Source: a virus
IMG/VR virus record: IMGVR_UViG_3300030103_001830
Location: 1-20,914 of that record
Strand: one strand, 5' to 3'
Length of the DNA stretch: 20,914 nucleotides
Both the position numbers and the translations under genes were made by a program. Shown one piece after another: positions 9,759-19,330 of the stretch (positions within the stretch are counted from its first letter, which is position 1; every line of letters begins with the position of its first letter). The notes under the pieces were generated by a model, which was not told where the DNA came from, made no database searches, and was given only the letters and a program-made list of their open reading frames with translations.

Positions 9759-10325
9759 GTGTCGGAAGAAAATACAGAAAATAAAAGAAAAAGAGGAAGA
9801 CCACCAAAGCCACCAGAACCAAAGGTTCAAGTGCAAAGACCAATTAAAAATGGACCACACAATAAATTCAATGGATCTTTTAAATCTGTAGAGCCATTAG
9901 GCACAGAAAAGGTTTTTAGGAAAAAGAGATATAAGTGGAACCATCAAGCATTAATAAACTGGATTATGGGACAAGCAGATCCTGCAGGCTTTCTTGGTGC
10001 AGTGATGACAGGCAAAGAAATATTCCCAGTATACAAGCAAGATGGTGAAGGTAAAGTAGAACATGTAGGCAAAGTATCAGCTGACCCAGAATTAAGAGTT
10101 ATGGCAGCAAAAACTCTGTTAGGTAAATGTGTTCCTGATTTAAAAGCTGTAGAAATTAATTCAACAGTTGAGCAAAAGAAAGTAATTGACATAACAAGGA
10201 TATCAAGCGATGACCTCAATACCATTGAACGAGCTCTTGAGCACTCTGTCATTGAATCAAGTGAAGGCAGAGAAGAGCAGGAGGAGTCTGAAGGAGTTTA
10301 TCAAAAACAGCTGGACAACAGTTGA
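9759..10325 (+). CDS. Terminase small subunit, probable
   Basis: A 188-aa protein that would recognise phage DNA for packaging. After an AT-hook-like KRKRGRPPKPPEP near the N-terminus comes a helical domain. Its block ADPELRVMAAKTLLGKCVPDLKAV matches the 'dPelRl.AA..Llp...P.LkAV' pattern of phage TerS-type proteins. The C-terminus is acidic (SSEGREEQEESEG). The GTG at 9759 is preferred because GAGG lies 5 bases upstream; an upstream in-frame TTG at 9735 has no usable SD spacing. Its last 116 bases overlap the start of TerL in another frame. Position directly before TerL is the strongest support. Confidence 0.75.
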   Translation: MSEENTENKRKRGRPPKPPEPKVQVQRPIKNGPHNKFNGSFKSVEPLGTEKVFRKKRYKWNHQALINWIMGQADPAGFLGAVMTGKEIFPVYKQDGEGKVEHVGKVSADPELRVMAAKTLLGKCVPDLKAVEINSTVEQKKVIDITRISSDDLNTIERALEHSVIESSEGREEQEESEGVYQKQLDNS

Positions 10326-11712
10326 ACCTGGAAGAGACTTCCACGACAATTGGCACATTGATGCTATATGCGAACACTTACAAGCAGTAGTTGAAGGTGA
10401 CATTAGGCGATTAATAATAAACATACCACCAAGACACATGAAGTCAATTACAGCATCAGTGGCACTACCAGCATGGTGCTGGACTAAATATCCTAACAAG
10501 AGATTTCTGTTTGCTAGTTATGCCAACTCTTTGTCAATAAGAGATTCTGTAAAATGTAGAAGATTAATAGATAGTAAATGGTATCAAGAGCATTTTGGAG
10601 ATATGTTTGATTTAACTACTGACCAGAACCAAAAGCAAAGGTTTGAGAATAATAAAACTGGGATGCGCATAGCTACGTCAGTTGATGGAGCATTGACTGG
10701 TGAGGGTGGTGACATTATAGTTATAGATGACCCACACAATGTCAGAGAAGCAGAATCTACAACAGTACGTGAAGGTGTTCTTGATTGGTGGGACCAAGCC
10801 ATGCAGACCAGACTCAATGACCCAAAGACAGGTGCATTCATTATTATCATGCAACGAGTACATGACAATGACCTAACTGGCCATATACTTAGCAATGACT
10901 ATGATTGGGACCATTTATGCCTACCAGCCAGACATGAAGCAAACCACCCATACCCATCAACCTCTACTATAGGCTTCAAAGACCCACGCACTGAAGAGGG
11001 AGAATTACTTTGGCCAAACAGGATAGACGAGTCCACACTAGACAAGCTTGAGCAATCACTAGGCATGTATGCTGCTTCTGGTCAATTACAACAACGACCA
11101 TCACCCAAAGGTGGCTCAATATTAAAACAAAGATGGTGGCGAGAATGGGAAAGTGCAGACTTACCTTCTGTAGAATATGTGATACAATCATGGGACACTG
11201 CCTACTCAACAAAAGAGAAGTCAAGTTACTCTGCTAGAACTACTTGGGGTGTTTTTAAATATGAAGGTTGTTGGAATGCTATTGCTCTTGACTGTTGGTA
11301 TGATAGAGTAAGCTATCCTGACCTCCGCAGAGAAGCACAAGAAGCATATGACGATTATGAACCAGACGTTGTTCTAATTGAAAAGAAGGCTAGTGGTCAA
11401 TCCCTAATACAAGACCTTAGGATGAGTGGTGTACCTGTGTTACCCTATATGCCAGACCGAGACAAAGAAGCACGTGCCCATGCAGCATCTGCACTTTTAG
11501 AAGATGGTAGAATCTGGTACCCAGCAAAAAAGAAGTGGGCAAAAGATCTGATTGAAATATGTTCTTCCTTTCCAACAGGAGAAAATGACGATATAGTAGA
11601 TACATGTACACAAGCATGGCTCAGGCTACGCAAGTCTTGGTTCTTGACCCACTCAGAAGATTGGGAAGATGAAGACCAAGAAATTATAGATAGGAAACCA
11701 TTATATGGCTGA
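10210..11712 (+). CDS. terL: Terminase large subunit
   Basis: The packaging motor: an N-terminal ATPase and a C-terminal RuvC-like nuclease in 500 aa. Walker A is the deviant PPRHMKS (73-79) after the strand RRLIINI. Walker B is IIVIDDP (169-175). A coupling-type segment with IIIMQRVHDNDLTG follows. The nuclease residues are D329 (QSWDTAYS), E391 (VLIEKKASG) and the D460/D461/D464 cluster (GENDDIVD). The N-terminal block SLKEFIKNSWTTVEPG with WHIDAICEHLQAV is typical of this terminase group. The ATG lies 116 bases inside terS, with AAGGAT about 10 bases upstream; the conserved N-terminal sequence argues that this start is real. The end overlaps the portal start by 8 bases. Function is certain; packaging type (cos or pac) is not visible. 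Confidence 0.96.
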   Translation: MTSIPLNELLSTLSLNQVKAEKSRRSLKEFIKNSWTTVEPGRDFHDNWHIDAICEHLQAVVEGDIRRLIINIPPRHMKSITASVALPAWCWTKYPNKRFLFASYANSLSIRDSVKCRRLIDSKWYQEHFGDMFDLTTDQNQKQRFENNKTGMRIATSVDGALTGEGGDIIVIDDPHNVREAESTTVREGVLDWWDQAMQTRLNDPKTGAFIIIMQRVHDNDLTGHILSNDYDWDHLCLPARHEANHPYPSTSTIGFKDPRTEEGELLWPNRIDESTLDKLEQSLGMYAASGQLQQRPSPKGGSILKQRWWREWESADLPSVEYVIQSWDTAYSTKEKSSYSARTTWGVFKYEGCWNAIALDCWYDRVSYPDLRREAQEAYDDYEPDVVLIEKKASGQSLIQDLRMSGVPVLPYMPDRDKEARAHAASALLEDGRIWYPAKKKWAKDLIEICSSFPTGENDDIVDTCTQAWLRLRKSWFLTHSEDWEDEDQEIIDRKPLYG

Positions 11713-14119
11713 AGATAAAAATGTAATACCCTTTACCGAAGGTGCTCCTCCTGACGACCTTGAAGTAGAGGAGACAAATGATGGTAATGTTCTTATAGGT
11801 GAAGCAGAAGAAACCACAGAACCAAAAACAGATTTTTACAGTAACCTAGCAGAACAAATCGACGAAAGAGAATTATTAGGACACTCCTCAGAGTTGCTAG
11901 ACTACTACCACACAGACCGAGAAGCAAGATCCAACTGGGAAGAAAGATATAAAGAAGGTTTAAAAACTCTTGACCCAGACGGAGGTCTACAAGAAGACGA
12001 CTCAGAAAGAGCAGCAAGAGGATTAAGCCAAGTTGTGCATCCTATGATAGCTGAAGCTGCAACACAATTTCAATCTAGGGCTATAGCCGAACTGTTTCCT
12101 GCTGCTGGTCCTGTAAAGACTGTAACAGTAGGTGAGTCAGACGAAGCAGTCAAAGAACAAGCCACTAGAGTTAAAGATTATATGAATTACCAACTTCTAG
12201 AAGAGATGCCTGAGTACTTCCCTGATATAGACCAGATGTTATTTCATCTACCACTCATCGGGCAAACTTTTAAAAAAGTATGGTACGACCCATCCATGGG
12301 CAGAGTGACGAGTCGCTTTGTTAAAGCTGAAGACTTCGTGGTTGCTGCAGAGAGTACTGACCTTTTAACTTCTCCTAGATATACGCATGTTATTCAATTA
12401 CCTCGTAACGAATACAATAGGTTTGTACAAGCTGGGTATTATCTGCCTGTGGATAGTTATTCTGGTGATGGTGGGGATAGTTATGATGAAACTGTATACG
12501 AGGTCGAAGGTGTAAGCCCAGAAGGTTCTGAAAGCATAGATGAGCAGATGACCTTACTAGAGATGCACACTTATAGAATATTAGATGGTATTGATGGAGC
12601 CAATGTTGAGGACGAGAACTTTGTTGCTTTACCTTACGTGATAACAATAGATTCAGGTTCACAACGCATTGTCTCTGTAAGACGTAACTGGGACGAACAA
12701 GATGAAGATAAAAAGAAACGTAACTGGTTTGTAGAATATAAGTTCTTACCAGGATTAGGATTTTATGGCTTTGGACTTTACCACTTGATTGGTGGGCTGG
12801 GTCGTGCTGCTACTGGTTCACTAAGAGCATTACTAGACTCCGCAGCATTTTCAAATATGCAAGGTGGCTTTAAATTAAAAGGTAGAGTTCCAGGAGGAGA
12901 CATGCAAATCAATCCTGGAGAGTTTGTTGATTTAGATGCTGCGGTTGATGATGTGAATAAGGCTATATTGCCTTTACCTTTTAAAGAGCCTAGTGGTACA
13001 TTATTTAATTTATTAGGTTTTATTGTTGATGCTGGTAGAAGGTATGCAGCAGTAGCAGATTTAAATGTAGGTGATGCTAATCCTAATGCACCTGTGGGCA
13101 CAACTATAGCAATGTTGGAACAAGGTTCTAAAATATTCTCAGCTATTCATAAAAGACTACACTACGCACAAGGTCAAGAGTTTAAAATGATAGCTAAGTT
13201 GAACTCCGAGACGTTGCCTGAGGTTTTTAAGTTTGCTGCGAGTGGTGCGAGTAAGATGATTAATGCTGCGGACTTTGATGATAGAATAGATATTATCCCA
13301 GTTAGCGATCCTAGTATTTTTAGTTCTACTCAACGTATCGCACAAGCCCAAGCTATACTACAACTCGCTCAATCAGCACCGCAACTCCACGATGTATATG
13401 AAGCTTATAAAAGAATGTATGAAGCTATACGAGTGCCCAACATTGATGAGATATTAAAAAAACCTGAGCAGGCTCCAAAGCTTGACCCAGTAGACGAGAA
13501 TATTGCCGTCATGTTAGGTAAACCTATAAAAGCCTTCATAGACCAAGACCATGAAGCACACATCGCTGTACACATGCAGTTTTTATCAGACCCATCCTTA
13601 GCTGGTAATAAGTTAGCACAAAAGACTATTGGTCCTGTATTGATTGCCCATATTGCGGAACACATGGCTCTACTTTATAGAGTCAGGATGCAAAAAGCTA
13701 TGGGTGTAGAATTACCACCACTACCAGATATCAGAGATCCTAAGTTTAAGTTTGAAGATGTGTCGCCACAGATGGACAATATGATTGCTGAAAGAGCAGC
13801 ACAAGTCATACAACAAGCTCCAAAGATGAAGCCAATCCCAGGAGTAGATAAACTAGGTGGAGGAGACCCAATGAATTATGCACAACAACTCGCTAAAATT
13901 GAAGCCGAAGCAGTTAAGGCAAGGACTCAAGCCGAAATCCAAGCTGACCAAGCAAAGGCAAAATCAGATATCCAGATTGACCAAGCTAAAGCACAAGTCG
14001 ATATTCAAAAATCTATGCAAAAGCTAAAAGCTGAACTTGAAGGTAAAATGGCTAAACTTCAAGCTGAAATACAAATAGCCAGAGAAAAAGAAATTATAAA
14101 AGCTAATAAGGAGACTTAA
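11705..14119 (+). CDS. Portal protein, P22-like
   Basis: The dodecameric head-vertex channel through which DNA enters. It is 804 aa, in the range of P22-type portals. Directly after terL, the N-terminal part (YYHTDREARSNWEERYKEGL, then AARGLSQVVHPMIAEAATQF) and the LPLIGQTFKKVWYDP segment are characteristic of long P22-like portals. The C-terminus, from about residue 735, is a regular coiled coil of Ala/Gln/Lys repeats (AEIQADQAKAKSDIQIDQ and so on). It would form the barrel that reaches into the head, as in P22. It overlaps terL by 8 bases. No head protease or capsid gene follows at once; the small-gene cassette separates the portal from the expected capsid. A podovirus-type virion is the likely form, but the tail genes are outside the window. 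Confidence 0.9.
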   Translation: MAEDKNVIPFTEGAPPDDLEVEETNDGNVLIGEAEETTEPKTDFYSNLAEQIDERELLGHSSELLDYYHTDREARSNWEERYKEGLKTLDPDGGLQEDDSERAARGLSQVVHPMIAEAATQFQSRAIAELFPAAGPVKTVTVGESDEAVKEQATRVKDYMNYQLLEEMPEYFPDIDQMLFHLPLIGQTFKKVWYDPSMGRVTSRFVKAEDFVVAAESTDLLTSPRYTHVIQLPRNEYNRFVQAGYYLPVDSYSGDGGDSYDETVYEVEGVSPEGSESIDEQMTLLEMHTYRILDGIDGANVEDENFVALPYVITIDSGSQRIVSVRRNWDEQDEDKKKRNWFVEYKFLPGLGFYGFGLYHLIGGLGRAATGSLRALLDSAAFSNMQGGFKLKGRVPGGDMQINPGEFVDLDAAVDDVNKAILPLPFKEPSGTLFNLLGFIVDAGRRYAAVADLNVGDANPNAPVGTTIAMLEQGSKIFSAIHKRLHYAQGQEFKMIAKLNSETLPEVFKFAASGASKMINAADFDDRIDIIPVSDPSIFSSTQRIAQAQAILQLAQSAPQLHDVYEAYKRMYEAIRVPNIDEILKKPEQAPKLDPVDENIAVMLGKPIKAFIDQDHEAHIAVHMQFLSDPSLAGNKLAQKTIGPVLIAHIAEHMALLYRVRMQKAMGVELPPLPDIRDPKFKFEDVSPQMDNMIAERAAQVIQQAPKMKPIPGVDKLGGGDPMNYAQQLAKIEAEAVKARTQAEIQADQAKAKSDIQIDQAKAQVDIQKSMQKLKAELEGKMAKLQAEIQIAREKEIIKANKET

Positions 14120-14590: not shown

Positions 14591-14829
14591 TGCCAAATAA
14601 TGTAGATGTAATGGGAATGTTTGAAGCTAAGATGGGCTTTTCAGCTAGTGAAGTACCAATGACCGAAGAACAAGTAACACAGTTCATGCTCCTCTGTCAG
14701 CAACAAATGTTAGGTTTACCAGAAGAAGAACACATGGAAGACGAAGAACCTATGAAGAGTGGTTCTGTAAAAATAATTAAGATAGGCAAAGGTTCATCAA
14801 TGATGGACAATATGCTAGAAGATGGCTGA
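14590..14829 (+). CDS. Small acidic protein, unknown
   Basis: A 79-aa protein, Met-rich (11 Met) and acidic in the middle (PEEEHMEDEEPM), with an N-terminal helical part (VPMTEEQVTQFMLLCQQQML). No family is recognised. The start ATG overlaps the previous stop as TAATG, with AGG sites upstream. Its end overlaps the next start by 8 bases. It belongs to the head-region cassette; function unknown. Confidence 0.6.
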   Translation: MPNNVDVMGMFEAKMGFSASEVPMTEEQVTQFMLLCQQQMLGLPEEEHMEDEEPMKSGSVKIIKIGKGSSMMDNMLEDG

Positions 14830-15508
14830 TAAAGTTACAGGAGTTTTAAACCTTTTAAAAGGTTTAGTAAAACAAACCCCAACTTCTAAAAGTACAGACC
14901 TAGTCATACCCACTAAAGCTGAGTTAGAAAAATTACCTCCAGACGATTTAGAAAAAATATCTAACCAACTTAAACAAGCCACCAATGTAGACCGAAGAGA
15001 GCTCATGAGAGGTGCTTTAGGTACTATAATGAATACAGCTATGGATGTAGGCACTTTAGGTAAAGTTGTTAAAGCTATTGAGCCACCTAAAAAAGTTAAA
15101 CCAATAAAAGAATCTATAGACCTTATACCTAAATTTTTTGATGACTTTAGAGAAGATCTTCGTGAGAGATTAGTAGATAATAAAATAGATGAGTTTATGG
15201 CTGAAGAAGGCATAGATGATTTAGATGCATATGCTGCTGAAACAGGTGTTGAAATTGACCCTGTAATAGATTCTTACGAGTTAGACCAACCTTTAGTAGA
15301 ACTTTGGATGTATTTGAAAAAACCTAAAAAAGACATAGAGTATGAATATTTAGATAATGAATTATCAGATATCGAAACATTTATGAAAGATAATAATATA
15401 TCTAATGAAGAGATGATTAAAAAAATAGAAGAGCAAGGTTTAAAACCCGATAACCAAGAATTAAAAGATTATGGTTTAGAAGAACTTATAGAGAAAAAAG
15501 ATGGTTAA
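14822..15508 (+). CDS. Unknown protein sharing an N-terminal module with the ART-like neighbour
   Basis: A 228-aa protein. Residues 5-43 resemble the start of the next gene product: VLNLLK (8-13), KQTP (17-20), IPTKAELE (29-36) and DL (42-43), against ALLNLLK, KQTP, IPNKQELE and DL at nearly identical positions. After this, a mildly hydrophobic helix follows RRELMRGALGTIM (58-70). The rest is acidic and helical, with no visible active site. It overlaps its neighbours by 8 bases at each end. The shared start suggests a common targeting or packaging tag, or an ancient duplication of the N-terminal part. It could be a partner or inhibitor of the next protein, or another internal virion protein. 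Confidence 0.65.
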   Translation: MADKVTGVLNLLKGLVKQTPTSKSTDLVIPTKAELEKLPPDDLEKISNQLKQATNVDRRELMRGALGTIMNTAMDVGTLGKVVKAIEPPKKVKPIKESIDLIPKFFDDFREDLRERLVDNKIDEFMAEEGIDDLDAYAAETGVEIDPVIDSYELDQPLVELWMYLKKPKKDIEYEYLDNELSDIETFMKDNNISNEEMIKKIEEQGLKPDNQELKDYGLEELIEKKDG

Positions 15509-16643
15509 ACTTACTCCAGGAGCATTGCTTAATTTATTAAAGCAAACACCAAAAACTAATCCACCTTCAGGTACAATATCTAAAATACCTAATAAACAAG
15601 AACTTGAAAGAGCATCAATTAGAGATCTTCAATTATTTAAAATGAATAAAGGTAGAGAGCCTACTCCTGAAGAAACTAAACTCATATTAGACAATAATAT
15701 AGGTGCATTAGGTTTTGTAAATTTAAGCGACTTAGTAAACAGAGGTGCACTAAAAGATATTTATAGAAGTCCAGGAATATTAAGAGAAGGATATGCTGAT
15801 GATTTAGGTCAAGTTGGTAGACCTACTCCCAAAACTTTAAGTCGTGAAGGTACAACTAAATCAACTAGCTTAATTGATACTGGAGATGTTGAGTTGAATG
15901 ACTTTGTTAATAGTCTGCGTTTAGATCCTAATAGTGGTGATGGTGGTCTCGCAGATACTATAAAAGGAATATTATATGATAAAGCTAATAAAGGTGCTGG
16001 GTTTTACGAACAAGATTTTTATACAGACATTATTACTAATAGTAAAGGTGAACGCATGGGCTATAGGAATAGTGATGAGTATAAAGAAGCTATGTTAGAG
16101 TATGATGACTTTGATGAAATGCTTAATCCTCAAGTTCGTATAAGAGTTCCAAAACATAGTAAAGTAGTTAATTATTTCAAAGACACTGCTAAAAATTACT
16201 TAGATGAAAAAGGTTTAGGAGATAAAATTTATTTATTTAGACAAGGCAGATTAGACAAAGGCGAGATAAAACATGATCCTGACCCAAAAGAGCCACTGTC
16301 TTTTTCATTAAGCCCAGAGCCTAAAGGTAATATTTTTCAAGTAAACTCTCGTGTTGATGTGTACGTTATAGACAAAAACGATGTACAAGCTTTACCAAAC
16401 CTTCATAAAAGAGGAGGTTCAGACTATGCTCTTGAAGAAGAAGTTTTAGCTGCAGGTGAAGATGTAGCTTATGTAGGTTCAATAGGTGATTATACTTTCG
16501 AAAGTGGTATTAAAATTAAAGATGTTGATGGTAGTAATCCTTACATCTATAAAGACAAACAAGGCAATACTATTGAAGAATTAAGTAAAAAAGCTAAAAT
16601 AGATTCAGAGCAATTTTTAAATCAACTCAAAGGAGATAAATAG
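15501..16643 (+). CDS. Candidate ADP-ribosyltransferase (R-S-E type)
   Basis: A 380-aa protein with the three hallmarks of the Arg/Ser/Glu class of ADP-ribosyltransferases in order: a strand ending in Arg (IYLFRQGR, R247), an S-x-S strand (PLSFSLSPEP, S267 and S269) and an ExE loop (LEEEVLAAGEDV, E312 and E314). The final 'EEEVL...G' is the usual NAD-site signature. The spacing (20 and about 45 residues) fits compact ART folds. Residues 1-43 match the start of the previous protein (LLNLLK, KQTP, IPxKxELE). No signal peptide or transmembrane segment is visible. Lying near portal and terminase rather than among early genes, it could be packaged and injected, like T4 Alt. Target, activity and packaging are inferred, and homology is judged by eye. 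Confidence 0.65.
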   Translation: MVKLTPGALLNLLKQTPKTNPPSGTISKIPNKQELERASIRDLQLFKMNKGREPTPEETKLILDNNIGALGFVNLSDLVNRGALKDIYRSPGILREGYADDLGQVGRPTPKTLSREGTTKSTSLIDTGDVELNDFVNSLRLDPNSGDGGLADTIKGILYDKANKGAGFYEQDFYTDIITNSKGERMGYRNSDEYKEAMLEYDDFDEMLNPQVRIRVPKHSKVVNYFKDTAKNYLDEKGLGDKIYLFRQGRLDKGEIKHDPDPKEPLSFSLSPEPKGNIFQVNSRVDVYVIDKNDVQALPNLHKRGGSDYALEEEVLAAGEDVAYVGSIGDYTFESGIKIKDVDGSNPYIYKDKQGNTIEELSKKAKIDSEQFLNQLKGDK

Positions 16644-16912
16644 TGGCTAAACTACCTAAAGTAAAAAAAGTAAAAACTCCAGGAGGTTACATGGTACCAG
16701 CTAAGTATGTGGCTGGGTTAAGTGGTGAACAACGTAAGAAGAGATTATTAGCCCTTGAAAAAATGCGTAAATCAGGTAAAGTTCTAGGAGATCTTCCAGG
16801 AGATAAAACACCTTCTGGTAAAAAAAGGAAAACAAAAGAATCTATATACACTAAAAAATTTAGGAAAATGTATGGCAATAAACGCAAAACAAAAAAAGGC
16901 TCTAAAAAATAA
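16643..16912 (+). CDS. Lysine-rich small phage protein
   Basis: An 89-aa, strongly basic protein (MAKLPKVKKVKTPGGYMVPA at the start; a helical AGLSGEQRKKRLLALEKM; a Lys-rich tail ending KRKTKKGSKK). The start is a GTG overlapping the previous stop by one base, with AAAGGAG upstream. No domain is recognised. First of a run of tiny basic proteins in which each start lies within or next to the previous gene. DNA binding inside the head is plausible from charge alone. Confidence 0.6.
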   Translation: MAKLPKVKKVKTPGGYMVPAKYVAGLSGEQRKKRLLALEKMRKSGKVLGDLPGDKTPSGKKRKTKESIYTKKFRKMYGNKRKTKKGSKK

Positions 16913-17165
16913 AGCAGAAAAAGCCAACGCACCACTAGGTGCTCTAACTACTATTTATAATAAAGGGTTAGGTGCTGCTGCTAGTGGCGGTCGTCGTCCA
17001 GGAGTCTCACCTTCAGCTTGGGCTATGGCTAGAGTTAACTCTGTATTGACAGGTGGTAAAGCTAGACAAGTTGATAAAAAGCAGTGGGAACAAATACAAG
17101 CTTATCGTAGGAAGAACAAAGGTAAGAAAAAGAAAACATCACCAACAAAAAAAGGAGGTAAATGA
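16872..17165 (+). CDS. Conserved small basic phage protein with GRRPGVSPSAWA motif
   Basis: A 97-aa protein. The middle (IYNKGLGAAASGGRRPGVS then PSAWAMARVNSVLTGGKARQ) resembles a family common in marine phages ('YN.G..A...GHRPG....QWA.ARV.SF'), which has no assigned function as far as I recall. The C-terminus is Lys-rich (RRKNKGKKKKTSPTKKGGK). It overlaps the previous gene by 41 bases; the ATG has AGGA 7 bases upstream. The motif is usually taken as part of a small virion or DNA-associated protein, but I have no evidence for that here. Confidence 0.7.
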   Translation: MAINAKQKKALKNKAEKANAPLGALTTIYNKGLGAAASGGRRPGVSPSAWAMARVNSVLTGGKARQVDKKQWEQIQAYRRKNKGKKKKTSPTKKGGK

Positions 17166-17287
17166 TGTACGGAAAAAAGACAATGAAAAAGAAGACAACT
17201 AAAAAAATGACCATGAAAGAAAAAATGGCAAAGCTTAGAAAAATGAAGGGCAAAAATAAAAAGAAGAAAACTTCTTCTTATAGCTAA
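17165..17287 (+). CDS. 40-aa Lys/Met-rich peptide
   Basis: Starts MYGKKTMKKKTTKKMTMKEK and ends KTSSYS; 17 of 40 residues are Lys and 6 are Met. ATG at 17165 lies 6 bases after the perfect GGAGG of AAAGGAGGT; an ATG at 17162 in frame is too close to it. Its stop overlaps the next ATG (TAATG). The strong SD and the tight packing argue it is translated. Its composition is protamine-like. Confidence 0.6.
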   Translation: MYGKKTMKKKTTKKMTMKEKMAKLRKMKGKNKKKKTSSYS

Positions 17288-17421
17288 TGCCAGTCAGAAA
17301 AGTCAAAGGTGGCTATAGGTGGGGTAGTAAAGGTAAAATCTACCCTACTAAAGCTTTAGCAGAAAAGCAAGGCAGAGCAATCATGGCTTCTAAAGGAAAA
17401 AAGAAGGGTGGCAAAAGCTAA
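17287..17421 (+). CDS. 44-aa conserved phage protein (MPVRKVKGGYRWG type)
   Basis: The peptide MPVRKVKGGYRWGSKGKIYP followed by TKALAEKQGRAIMASKGKKK belongs to a short family frequent in marine phages, with the pattern 'RKVKGGYRWG..GK.YPTKA.AE.QG.AI'. Function unknown. Its start overlaps the previous stop by one base and its Lys-rich tail overlaps the next GTG. The family match is from memory and supports that it is a real gene. Confidence 0.7.
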   Translation: MPVRKVKGGYRWGSKGKIYPTKALAEKQGRAIMASKGKKKGGKS

Positions 17422-18795: not shown

Positions 18796-18999
18796 ATGAA
18801 GCCAGAGAACTTAGATAAATGGCGCATATGGCCAAGACTGTTAATTACTCTTTATGGTTTAGCTTTTTTTAGAGTAACAGAGTGGTTTATGCAACTTGAA
18901 GATCCAACTAATGCACAGTCTGCTTTTGTTAGTGTTTTAGTAGGAGCAGGTGCTGCATGGTTTGGTTTATATTGTGGGACTGGTAAGAAAAGTGAGTAA
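18796..18999 (+). CDS. Two-helix small membrane protein, holin candidate
   Basis: A 67-aa protein with two transmembrane helices (about 11-32 and 41-60) joined by a short LEDPTNAQSA loop, and a short basic tail. The 'DP..AQ.AFVS...GA...WFGLY' pattern is common in small phage membrane proteins. Length and topology fit a class II holin, which would let the lysozyme two genes downstream reach the cell wall. It is equally compatible with an uncharacterised membrane protein. No clear SD; the upstream gap is only 27 bases. Confidence 0.7.
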   Translation: MKPENLDKWRIWPRLLITLYGLAFFRVTEWFMQLEDPTNAQSAFVSVLVGAGAAWFGLYCGTGKKSE

Positions 19000-19330
19000 C
19001 AAAGAAGCTAAACTTAAAAAGTATGGTTTAAAAGGTTTAAATAAACCTAAACGAACCCCAAACCACCCAACAAAGAAAGGTATAGTAGCAGTTAAAGATG
19101 GTGAAAAAATTAAAATTATTCGCTTTGGCGACCAAAAAATGGGTCACAACTATAGTGACGAAGCTCGTAAAAACTTTAAACAACGGCATGCTAAAAATAT
19201 TAAAAAAGGTAAAACAAGTGCTGCATTTTGGGCGAACAAAGTTTTTTGGTCTGGTGAAAAGGGCTCTAAAAAGAATCCACCAAAAAGTCAAAAGCATGTT
19301 AAAGGGAGAGTAAAAGGTGGCAGATCTTAA
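18992..19330 (+). CDS. Conserved phage protein, DUF6321-like
   Basis: A 112-aa basic protein starting at GTG 18992 (MSNKEAKLKKYGLKGLNKPK). The blocks PKRTPNHPTKKGIVAVKDGE, KIKIIRFGDQKMG and ARKNFKQRHAKNIKKGKTSA then AFWANKVFW match a family widespread in phages that I recall as DUF6321. No function is established. The His/Arg-rich core suggests nucleic-acid contact. The upstream extension in frame (to 18950) lies inside the membrane protein gene and is unlikely. It overlaps both neighbours. Confidence 0.8.
   Translation: MSNKEAKLKKYGLKGLNKPKRTPNHPTKKGIVAVKDGEKIKIIRFGDQKMGHNYSDEARKNFKQRHAKNIKKGKTSAAFWANKVFWSGEKGSKKNPPKSQKHVKGRVKGGRS

What the first reader, a model, noticed from the sequence alone, without database searches (positions are those of the whole stretch)
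15501..16643. Phage-encoded ADP-ribosyltransferase candidate in the head-gene cassette
The 380-aa product has the R-S-E order: R247 in LFRQGR, S267-F-S269, and E312-E-E314 in LEEEVLAAG, with spacing typical of compact ADP-ribosyltransferases. It is encoded with late genes, four genes downstream of the portal, not with early genes. A virion-borne ART delivered with the DNA has the T4 Alt precedent, but here the rest of the protein and its tag are unlike anything I recognise. The motifs are read by eye; a statistical profile match is still missing.
Basis: partly seen in the sequence, partly recalled or inferred. Interest (0 to 1): 0.85.

Follow-up and report, generated by a model that had tools for sequence, protein, structure and literature searches.

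The report
Tagged phage ADP-ribosyltransferase-like head-locus protein
A marine phage encodes, among its head genes, a protein that probably is an enzyme which would tag host molecules with ADP-ribose, fused to a swappable N-terminal address label that neighbouring proteins also carry, suggesting a set of effectors packed into the virus particle.

Summary
The ORF is real (15501-16643, 380 aa, fourth gene after the portal). The R-S-E residues (R247, S267-F-S269, E312-E-E314) are invariant in all complete relatives found, including one at about 30% identity. No sequence profile matches any known family. An AlphaFold2 model of the distant relative's body (pLDDT 73.5, pTM 0.74) puts R, SxS and ExE on the strands expected for an ADP-ribosyltransferase (ART). 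Its best solved-structure matches are the ART-like domain of CNFy (E 0.02, probability 0.95). A top viral match appears to be an unannotated Bacillus phage SP-15 protein with a plain R-S-E motif. So 'R-S-E ART-like' is the best reading, but overlap is modest and activity is untested. It is not in the T4 ModA/ModB family by sequence.

The wider find is the cassette. Within a phage, adjacent late genes share an N-terminal tag with unrelated bodies, and bodies swap between tags; the ART body occurs behind three. Sister phages CRP-901/902 use another tag on a PBECR5 nuclease-like protein, and CRP-902 also on a GNAT. This resembles T4 internal proteins with a shared capsid-targeting sequence. Virion packaging is inferred, not shown. 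Verdict: new variant of a known kind.

The parts
15501..16643 (+). 380-aa CDS: N-terminal tag, linker and R-S-E ART-like body
   Evidence: conserved ORF in other contigs
15501..15614 (+). N-terminal tag (residues 1-38, MVKLTPGALLNLLKQTPKTNPPSG...IPNKQELERA), similar to the tag of the upstream gene
   Evidence: tag alignment score 56 against a shuffle maximum of 47; in L023/L036 the same body sits behind a MADKVTG tag
15615..15872 (+). linker (residues 39-124) with the 'RGALKDI' element that aligns with L051
15873..16493 (+). ART-like body (residues 125-331), the stretch homologous to the modelled body of L051
16239..16241 (+). R247, putative NAD-binding arginine at the end of strand 1
   Evidence: invariant; strand E98-103 in the L051 model
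16299..16307 (+). S267-F268-S269 (SxS) on strand 2
   Evidence: invariant; strand E113-119 in the L051 model
16434..16442 (+). E312-E313-E314 (ExE), putative catalytic glutamate E314
   Evidence: invariant; immediately before/at strand E164-168 in the L051 model
14822..15508 (+). upstream cassette gene (228 aa), tag MADKVTGVLNLLKGLVKQTPTSKSTDLVIPTKAELEKL, different body; overlaps the next gene by 8 nt
11705..14119 (+). portal protein (SU10 type)
10210..11712 (+). terminase large subunit

Best explanation
The 380-aa protein is a late, probably virion-packaged effector. Its N-terminal tag (about 40 residues) is an address shared with neighbouring cassette proteins, and its C-terminal body (about residues 125-331) is a compact R-S-E type ADP-ribosyltransferase-like domain. 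Proposed mechanism: (1) made with head proteins late in infection [inferred from gene position]; (2) the tag docks it into the prohead or portal region during assembly [inferred]; (3) it enters the next host cell with the DNA [inferred]; (4) R247, S267/S269 and E314 bind NAD+ and transfer ADP-ribose to a host macromolecule early in infection, favouring takeover or blocking defence [inferred; only residue conservation and an ART-like predicted fold are shown]. The target is unknown.
For: R, SFS and EEE are invariant across the family down to about 30% identity, while R250 is not. The AF2 model of the distant relative (pLDDT 73.5, pTM 0.74) puts R103, S115/S117 and E162-164 on or at strands 1, 2 and the strand after the loop, as in R-S-E ARTs. 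The four best PDB matches are CNFy structures that share domain D4 (E 0.02-0.1, probability 0.84-0.95); D4 is reported as ART-like (PMC9426531). Pierisin-1 and TreTu, both ARTs, appear lower down with weak scores. The viral library's second match (E 2e-3, probability 0.96), identified by length as SP-15 SP15_258, has FRG - SSFSYS - EAEVVLLGG, and hhalign pairs its helix + FRG strand in register with ours (33 columns, 33% identity, P 0.017, low probability). Tag sharing and tag/body exchange. Sister-phage tagged bodies are PBECR5 (2e-11) and GNAT (2e-4). ARTs near portal/terminase genes are a known pattern and about 44% of phage ARTs lie in head-packaging contexts (PMC9503650). T4 precedent: diverse internal proteins with a shared capsid-targeting sequence (PMC3012670).
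Against: No significant sequence or profile match to any ART family; hhalign to an eight-member ModA/ModB alignment fails (probability 0.1-0.2%). Foldseek TM-scores are low (0.28-0.36), no match reaches E 0.001, and the other four models had pLDDT 49-68. The first, full-length model of the window protein failed (pLDDT 35.5), so the fold is carried over by homology. The R-to-S spacing can be only 10 residues and there is no 'A..FA' helix after SxS, unlike ModA. No direct evidence of packaging; no Peptidase_S78 prohead protease was found, so a T4-like cleaved tag is unsupported.
Confidence: 0.55

Rival explanations
1. A tagged ART-fold protein that is not delivered by the virion: it is made late and acts inside the infected cell (late host takeover, counter-defence or superinfection exclusion), and the shared tag serves complex assembly or solubility.
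For: Packaging is only inferred from position and tags; no virion proteomics for these phages was found in the passages read (the CRP-901/902 paper, PMC10149686, is a genomic study). T4 ModA/ModB are non-packaged phage ARTs (PMC5512222).
Against: The gene lies in the portal-to-capsid region and shares tags with neighbours in several phages; PBECR-type and ART bodies in this context are usually predicted virion cargo.
Confidence: 0.2
2. A catalytically dead (pseudo-ART) or purely structural internal head protein; the conserved Arg, Ser and Glu have a folding or packing role.
For: CNFy D4, the best structural match, is itself only ART-like with no known activity; the domain lacks some canonical ART elements.
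Against: The conserved residues are exactly R, SxS and ExE, kept at about 30% identity where most other positions changed; SP15_258 shows the same motif set.
Confidence: 0.17
3. A different alpha+beta fold; the R-S-E order is a coincidence. An SH2-like fold was suggested by weak profile matches to SYK.
For: hmmsearch matches to SYK SH2, E 0.04-0.4; no ART profile match.
Against: No SH2 structure among the 50 listed Foldseek matches, while the four best are an ART-like domain; SH2 would not explain conserved EEE.
Confidence: 0.08

Closest known systems
T4 Alt (R-S-E ART packaged in the head and injected with DNA) and T4 internal proteins with a capsid-targeting sequence
   Same: R-S-E residues; late head-associated coding; conserved N-terminal tag on otherwise diverse proteins (PMC3012670, PMC5512222)
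   Different: No sequence relationship found to the Mod family; no S78 prohead protease was found; packaging not shown. The Alt and CTS sequences themselves were not compared
T4 ModA/ModB family
   Same: R ... SxS ... ExE order
   Different: No profile-profile match; shorter R-to-S spacing, no A..FA helix, head-locus rather than early coding
Bacillus phage SP-15 SP15_258 (469 aa, unannotated)
   Same: Structural match E 2e-3 and the same motif layout FRG / SSFSYS / EAEVV
   Different: Different N-terminal part, ordinary A..FA helix present, no tag cassette examined; identified in the structure library by length only
CNFy domain D4 (ART-like, DUF4765)
   Same: Best solved-structure match
   Different: 11-12% identity, low TM-score; part of a bacterial toxin, not a phage protein
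Polyvalent/MuF-linked phage effectors (Iyer et al. 2017, 2022)
   Same: ART, PBECR and GNAT-type domains encoded with head genes
   Different: Polyvalent ARTs are H-Y-D and fused in large proteins; here bodies are separate small genes joined by a shared tag
Roseobacter phages CRP-901/CRP-902 (closest cultured relatives)
   Same: TerL 71%, MCP 79% identity; multi-gene cassette with a shared N-terminal tag at the same place
   Different: Other tag (MANPVKGAI.QLGE.VI) and other bodies; no ART body

Membership tests
R-S-E clade ADP-ribosyltransferases | Conserved R on strand 1, S/T-x-S on strand 2, (E/Q)-x-E at the strand after the ARTT loop | tested here: met
   Invariant in all relatives; strand positions in the AF2 model of L051
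R-S-E clade ADP-ribosyltransferases | ART split-sheet fold with NAD pocket | tested here: inconclusive
R-S-E clade ADP-ribosyltransferases | Statistically significant sequence-profile match to a known ART family | tested here: not met
   Pfam, PHROGs, NCBIfam, PDB sequence searches
R-S-E clade ADP-ribosyltransferases | NAD-dependent ADP-ribosyl transfer, lost on changing the ExE glutamate | not testable with these tools
   needs enzyme assay
T4 ModA/ModB family | Sequence homology to ModA/ModB | tested here: not met
   hhalign probability 0.1-0.2%
T4 Alt-like virion-injected ARTs | Encoded with late/head genes | tested here: met
   fourth gene after portal, before lysozyme, GroES, scaffold-like and capsid genes
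T4 Alt-like virion-injected ARTs | Present in the virion and delivered to the host | not testable with these tools
   needs virion proteomics
T4 Alt-like virion-injected ARTs | N-terminal packaging sequence shared with other internal proteins | tested here: inconclusive
   an N-terminal tag is shared within phages and swapped between bodies; that it directs packaging is inferred only
T4 Alt-like virion-injected ARTs | Tag processed by a prohead protease | tested here: inconclusive
   No Peptidase_S78 in 8 records, some of them fragments; other protease types not searched
Polyvalent-protein ARTs (H-Y-D) | H-Y-D active site | tested here: not met
   R-S-E residues instead
SH2 domain | SH2 fold | tested here: not met
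   no SH2 match among the 50 listed Foldseek matches

The most novel reading that the evidence does not exclude
These marine phages carry an interchangeable virion-cargo system: each clade has its own N-terminal address tag, and many unrelated effector bodies (a new compact R-S-E ART family, PBECR-type nuclease, GNAT, several unknown folds) are loaded by acquiring that tag, so that effectors are swapped between phages by recombination just after the tag.
Probability: 0.4. Interest if true: 0.7.

Novelty: new variant of a known kind. Interest (0 to 1): 0.5.

Why it matters
If right, it adds an unrecognised compact ART family to the list of phage head-locus effectors and gives a sequence handle (the shared tag) for listing virion cargo in uncultured marine phages, whose cassette proteins match almost no curated family. 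CRP-901/902 are cultured, so the tag-equals-cargo rule is directly testable by virion proteomics.

Tried and rejected
Single-sequence and profile searches for a known family: none. The full-length AF2 model on a shallow alignment failed. A degenerate DNA pattern scan for SFSxSP...DVY found only the same family plus two chance hits without a matching frame. Bacterial and archaeal genome contigs hold no relative. tblastn against cultured phages: none. SH2 reading rejected (against 81). hhalign to ModA/ModB: none. MAG-derived portal relatives added no ART homologue. No second copy in the same records, and none in CRP-901/902 or HTVC023P. I considered the HYD-type polyvalent ART and set it aside because the residues are R-S-E.

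Full report
OBSERVATION. The ORF at 15501-16643 is real: 380 aa, conserved as an ORF in other contigs. It follows terminase (PHROG 3.6e-96), portal (SU10_portal 1.4e-12), a 156-aa, a 79-aa and a 228-aa gene. They are invariant in relatives at 57-91% identity. A portal-based scan followed by an HMM search found one distant relative, L051:12032-12835 (E 1e-18), which keeps 'MYVFRQG', 'FSFS' and 'DEEEIL' at about 30% identity. R250 is not kept. A loose R-S-E pattern is found in only 2 of 654 ORFs of related loci, both from this family, and in 14 of 20,000 shuffles (the pattern was composed with the family known, so it measures specificity only).

WHAT THE BODY IS. No library or PDB sequence gave a credible match, and no relative was found in cultured phages or in genome contigs. 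A first AF2 run on the full window protein failed (pLDDT 35.5). With the body of L051 as query and seven relatives, AF2 gave pLDDT 73.5 and pTM 0.74 for the best model; the other four models were worse. In that model R103 ends strand 98-103, S115/S117 lie on strand 113-119 and E162-164 stand at the start of strand 164-168. That is the layout of R-S-E ADP-ribosyltransferases (general knowledge of the ART superfamily). Foldseek against PDB: the four best matches are CNFy entries (E 0.02-0.1, probability 0.84-0.95). D4 is the domain shared by the 1-704 fragment and the D4-D5 fragment, and it has been called ART-like (PMC9426531). Two ARTs, pierisin-1 and TreTu, come lower with insignificant scores. 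Against viral models the best matches reach E 2e-3. One is a 469-aa SP-15 protein; by length this is SP15_258 (L145:41139-42548). That protein reads YLFRG...SSFSYSFEESMKFAS...VVFIKVPRERVL...EAEVVLLGG, a textbook R-S-E layout, and hhalign aligns its helix and FRG strand with ours (P 0.017, low probability). The independent structure search thus landed on a protein with the same motif set. The ModA/ModB alignment does not match. The honest status is ART-like fold and residues, moderate support, no family membership by sequence, no activity data.

THE CASSETTE. In the window the upstream gene (14822-15508) and the ART-like gene share an N-terminal segment '..LLNLLK..K..P.S...IP.K.ELE', while their bodies score near background. 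In relatives the cassette has two to three such genes. L023/L036 carry the same ART body behind the MADKVTG tag that elsewhere belongs to the neighbour. L051 carries it behind MPKLPIKKPGALP...GVLDNLP, a tag it shares with its own neighbour and with genes of L050. One 244-247-aa body occurs behind two tags (L006 against L007/L010), and the L050:12496 body joins the group found behind MADKVTG in L004/L007/L009 (that grouping is single-linkage). In CRP-902 four genes share MANPVKGAI-type tags; the bodies include PBECR5 (2e-11) and GNAT (2e-4). The tags are therefore phage-specific and the bodies exchangeable. Not every pair passes on its own: in L007 the ART tag against its neighbours is weak (p 0.02-0.06). 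[quoted passage not shown] Virion ARTs near portal/terminase genes are a recognised pattern (PMC9503650, PMC5512222). No Peptidase_S78 prohead protease was found in eight records, some of them fragments, so a cleaved T4-type tag is not supported.

MECHANISM. Shown: conserved residues, an ART-like predicted fold of a homologue, tag sharing and tag/body exchange, late head-region coding. Inferred: packaging through the tag, delivery with DNA, NAD-dependent modification of a host target. Confidence about 0.75 for ART-like, 0.55 for the whole.

NOVELTY. A phage ART at the head locus is a known kind. The compact orphan R-S-E family and the tag-swapped cassette of separate small genes are, as far as I searched, undescribed. 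I file it as a new variant of a known kind.

Noticed in passing
window 16643-16912 and 16872-17165 (also L005, L007, L009): Two overlapping ORFs each match one half of DUF5824 (profile 1-61 and 57-118), with a conserved 41-nt overlap in different frames: a split gene or a frameshift (+1 needed). No Rfam match in 16500-17300.
   Followed up: partly
window 14822-15508, L007:610, L050:11855, L051:11427, L132:8619: Cassette proteins carry a 'RRE(F/L)(L/M)RGALG' or 'RRGFLTGAVAAP' element resembling a twin-arginine signal, about 25-60 residues from the start.
   Followed up: no
L026:13155-14696 and L026:15491-16237 (CRP-902 gp65, gp68): Tagged proteins with PBECR5 nuclease-like (2e-11) and GNAT (2e-4) bodies; gp65 is annotated only as 'nuclease', gp68 as hypothetical in the record.
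   Followed up: partly
L145:41139-42548 (Bacillus phage SP-15 SP15_258): Unannotated 469-aa protein with a clear R-S-E ART motif layout in its C-terminal part; no Pfam, other cultured-phage or PDB sequence match.
   Followed up: partly
window 18950-19330: 126-aa product matches PHROG 220 'minor head protein and DNA pilot' (1.2e-6) and PHROG 7595 (6e-26).
   Followed up: no
L039:3031-5907 (same phage, contig IMGVR_UViG_3300030380_000566): 958-aa protein right after the capsid gene, no Pfam match, with a 'HHGGEQGIISHSLI...EITEIQSD' stretch of the kind I associate (from memory) with polyvalent proteins.
   Followed up: no
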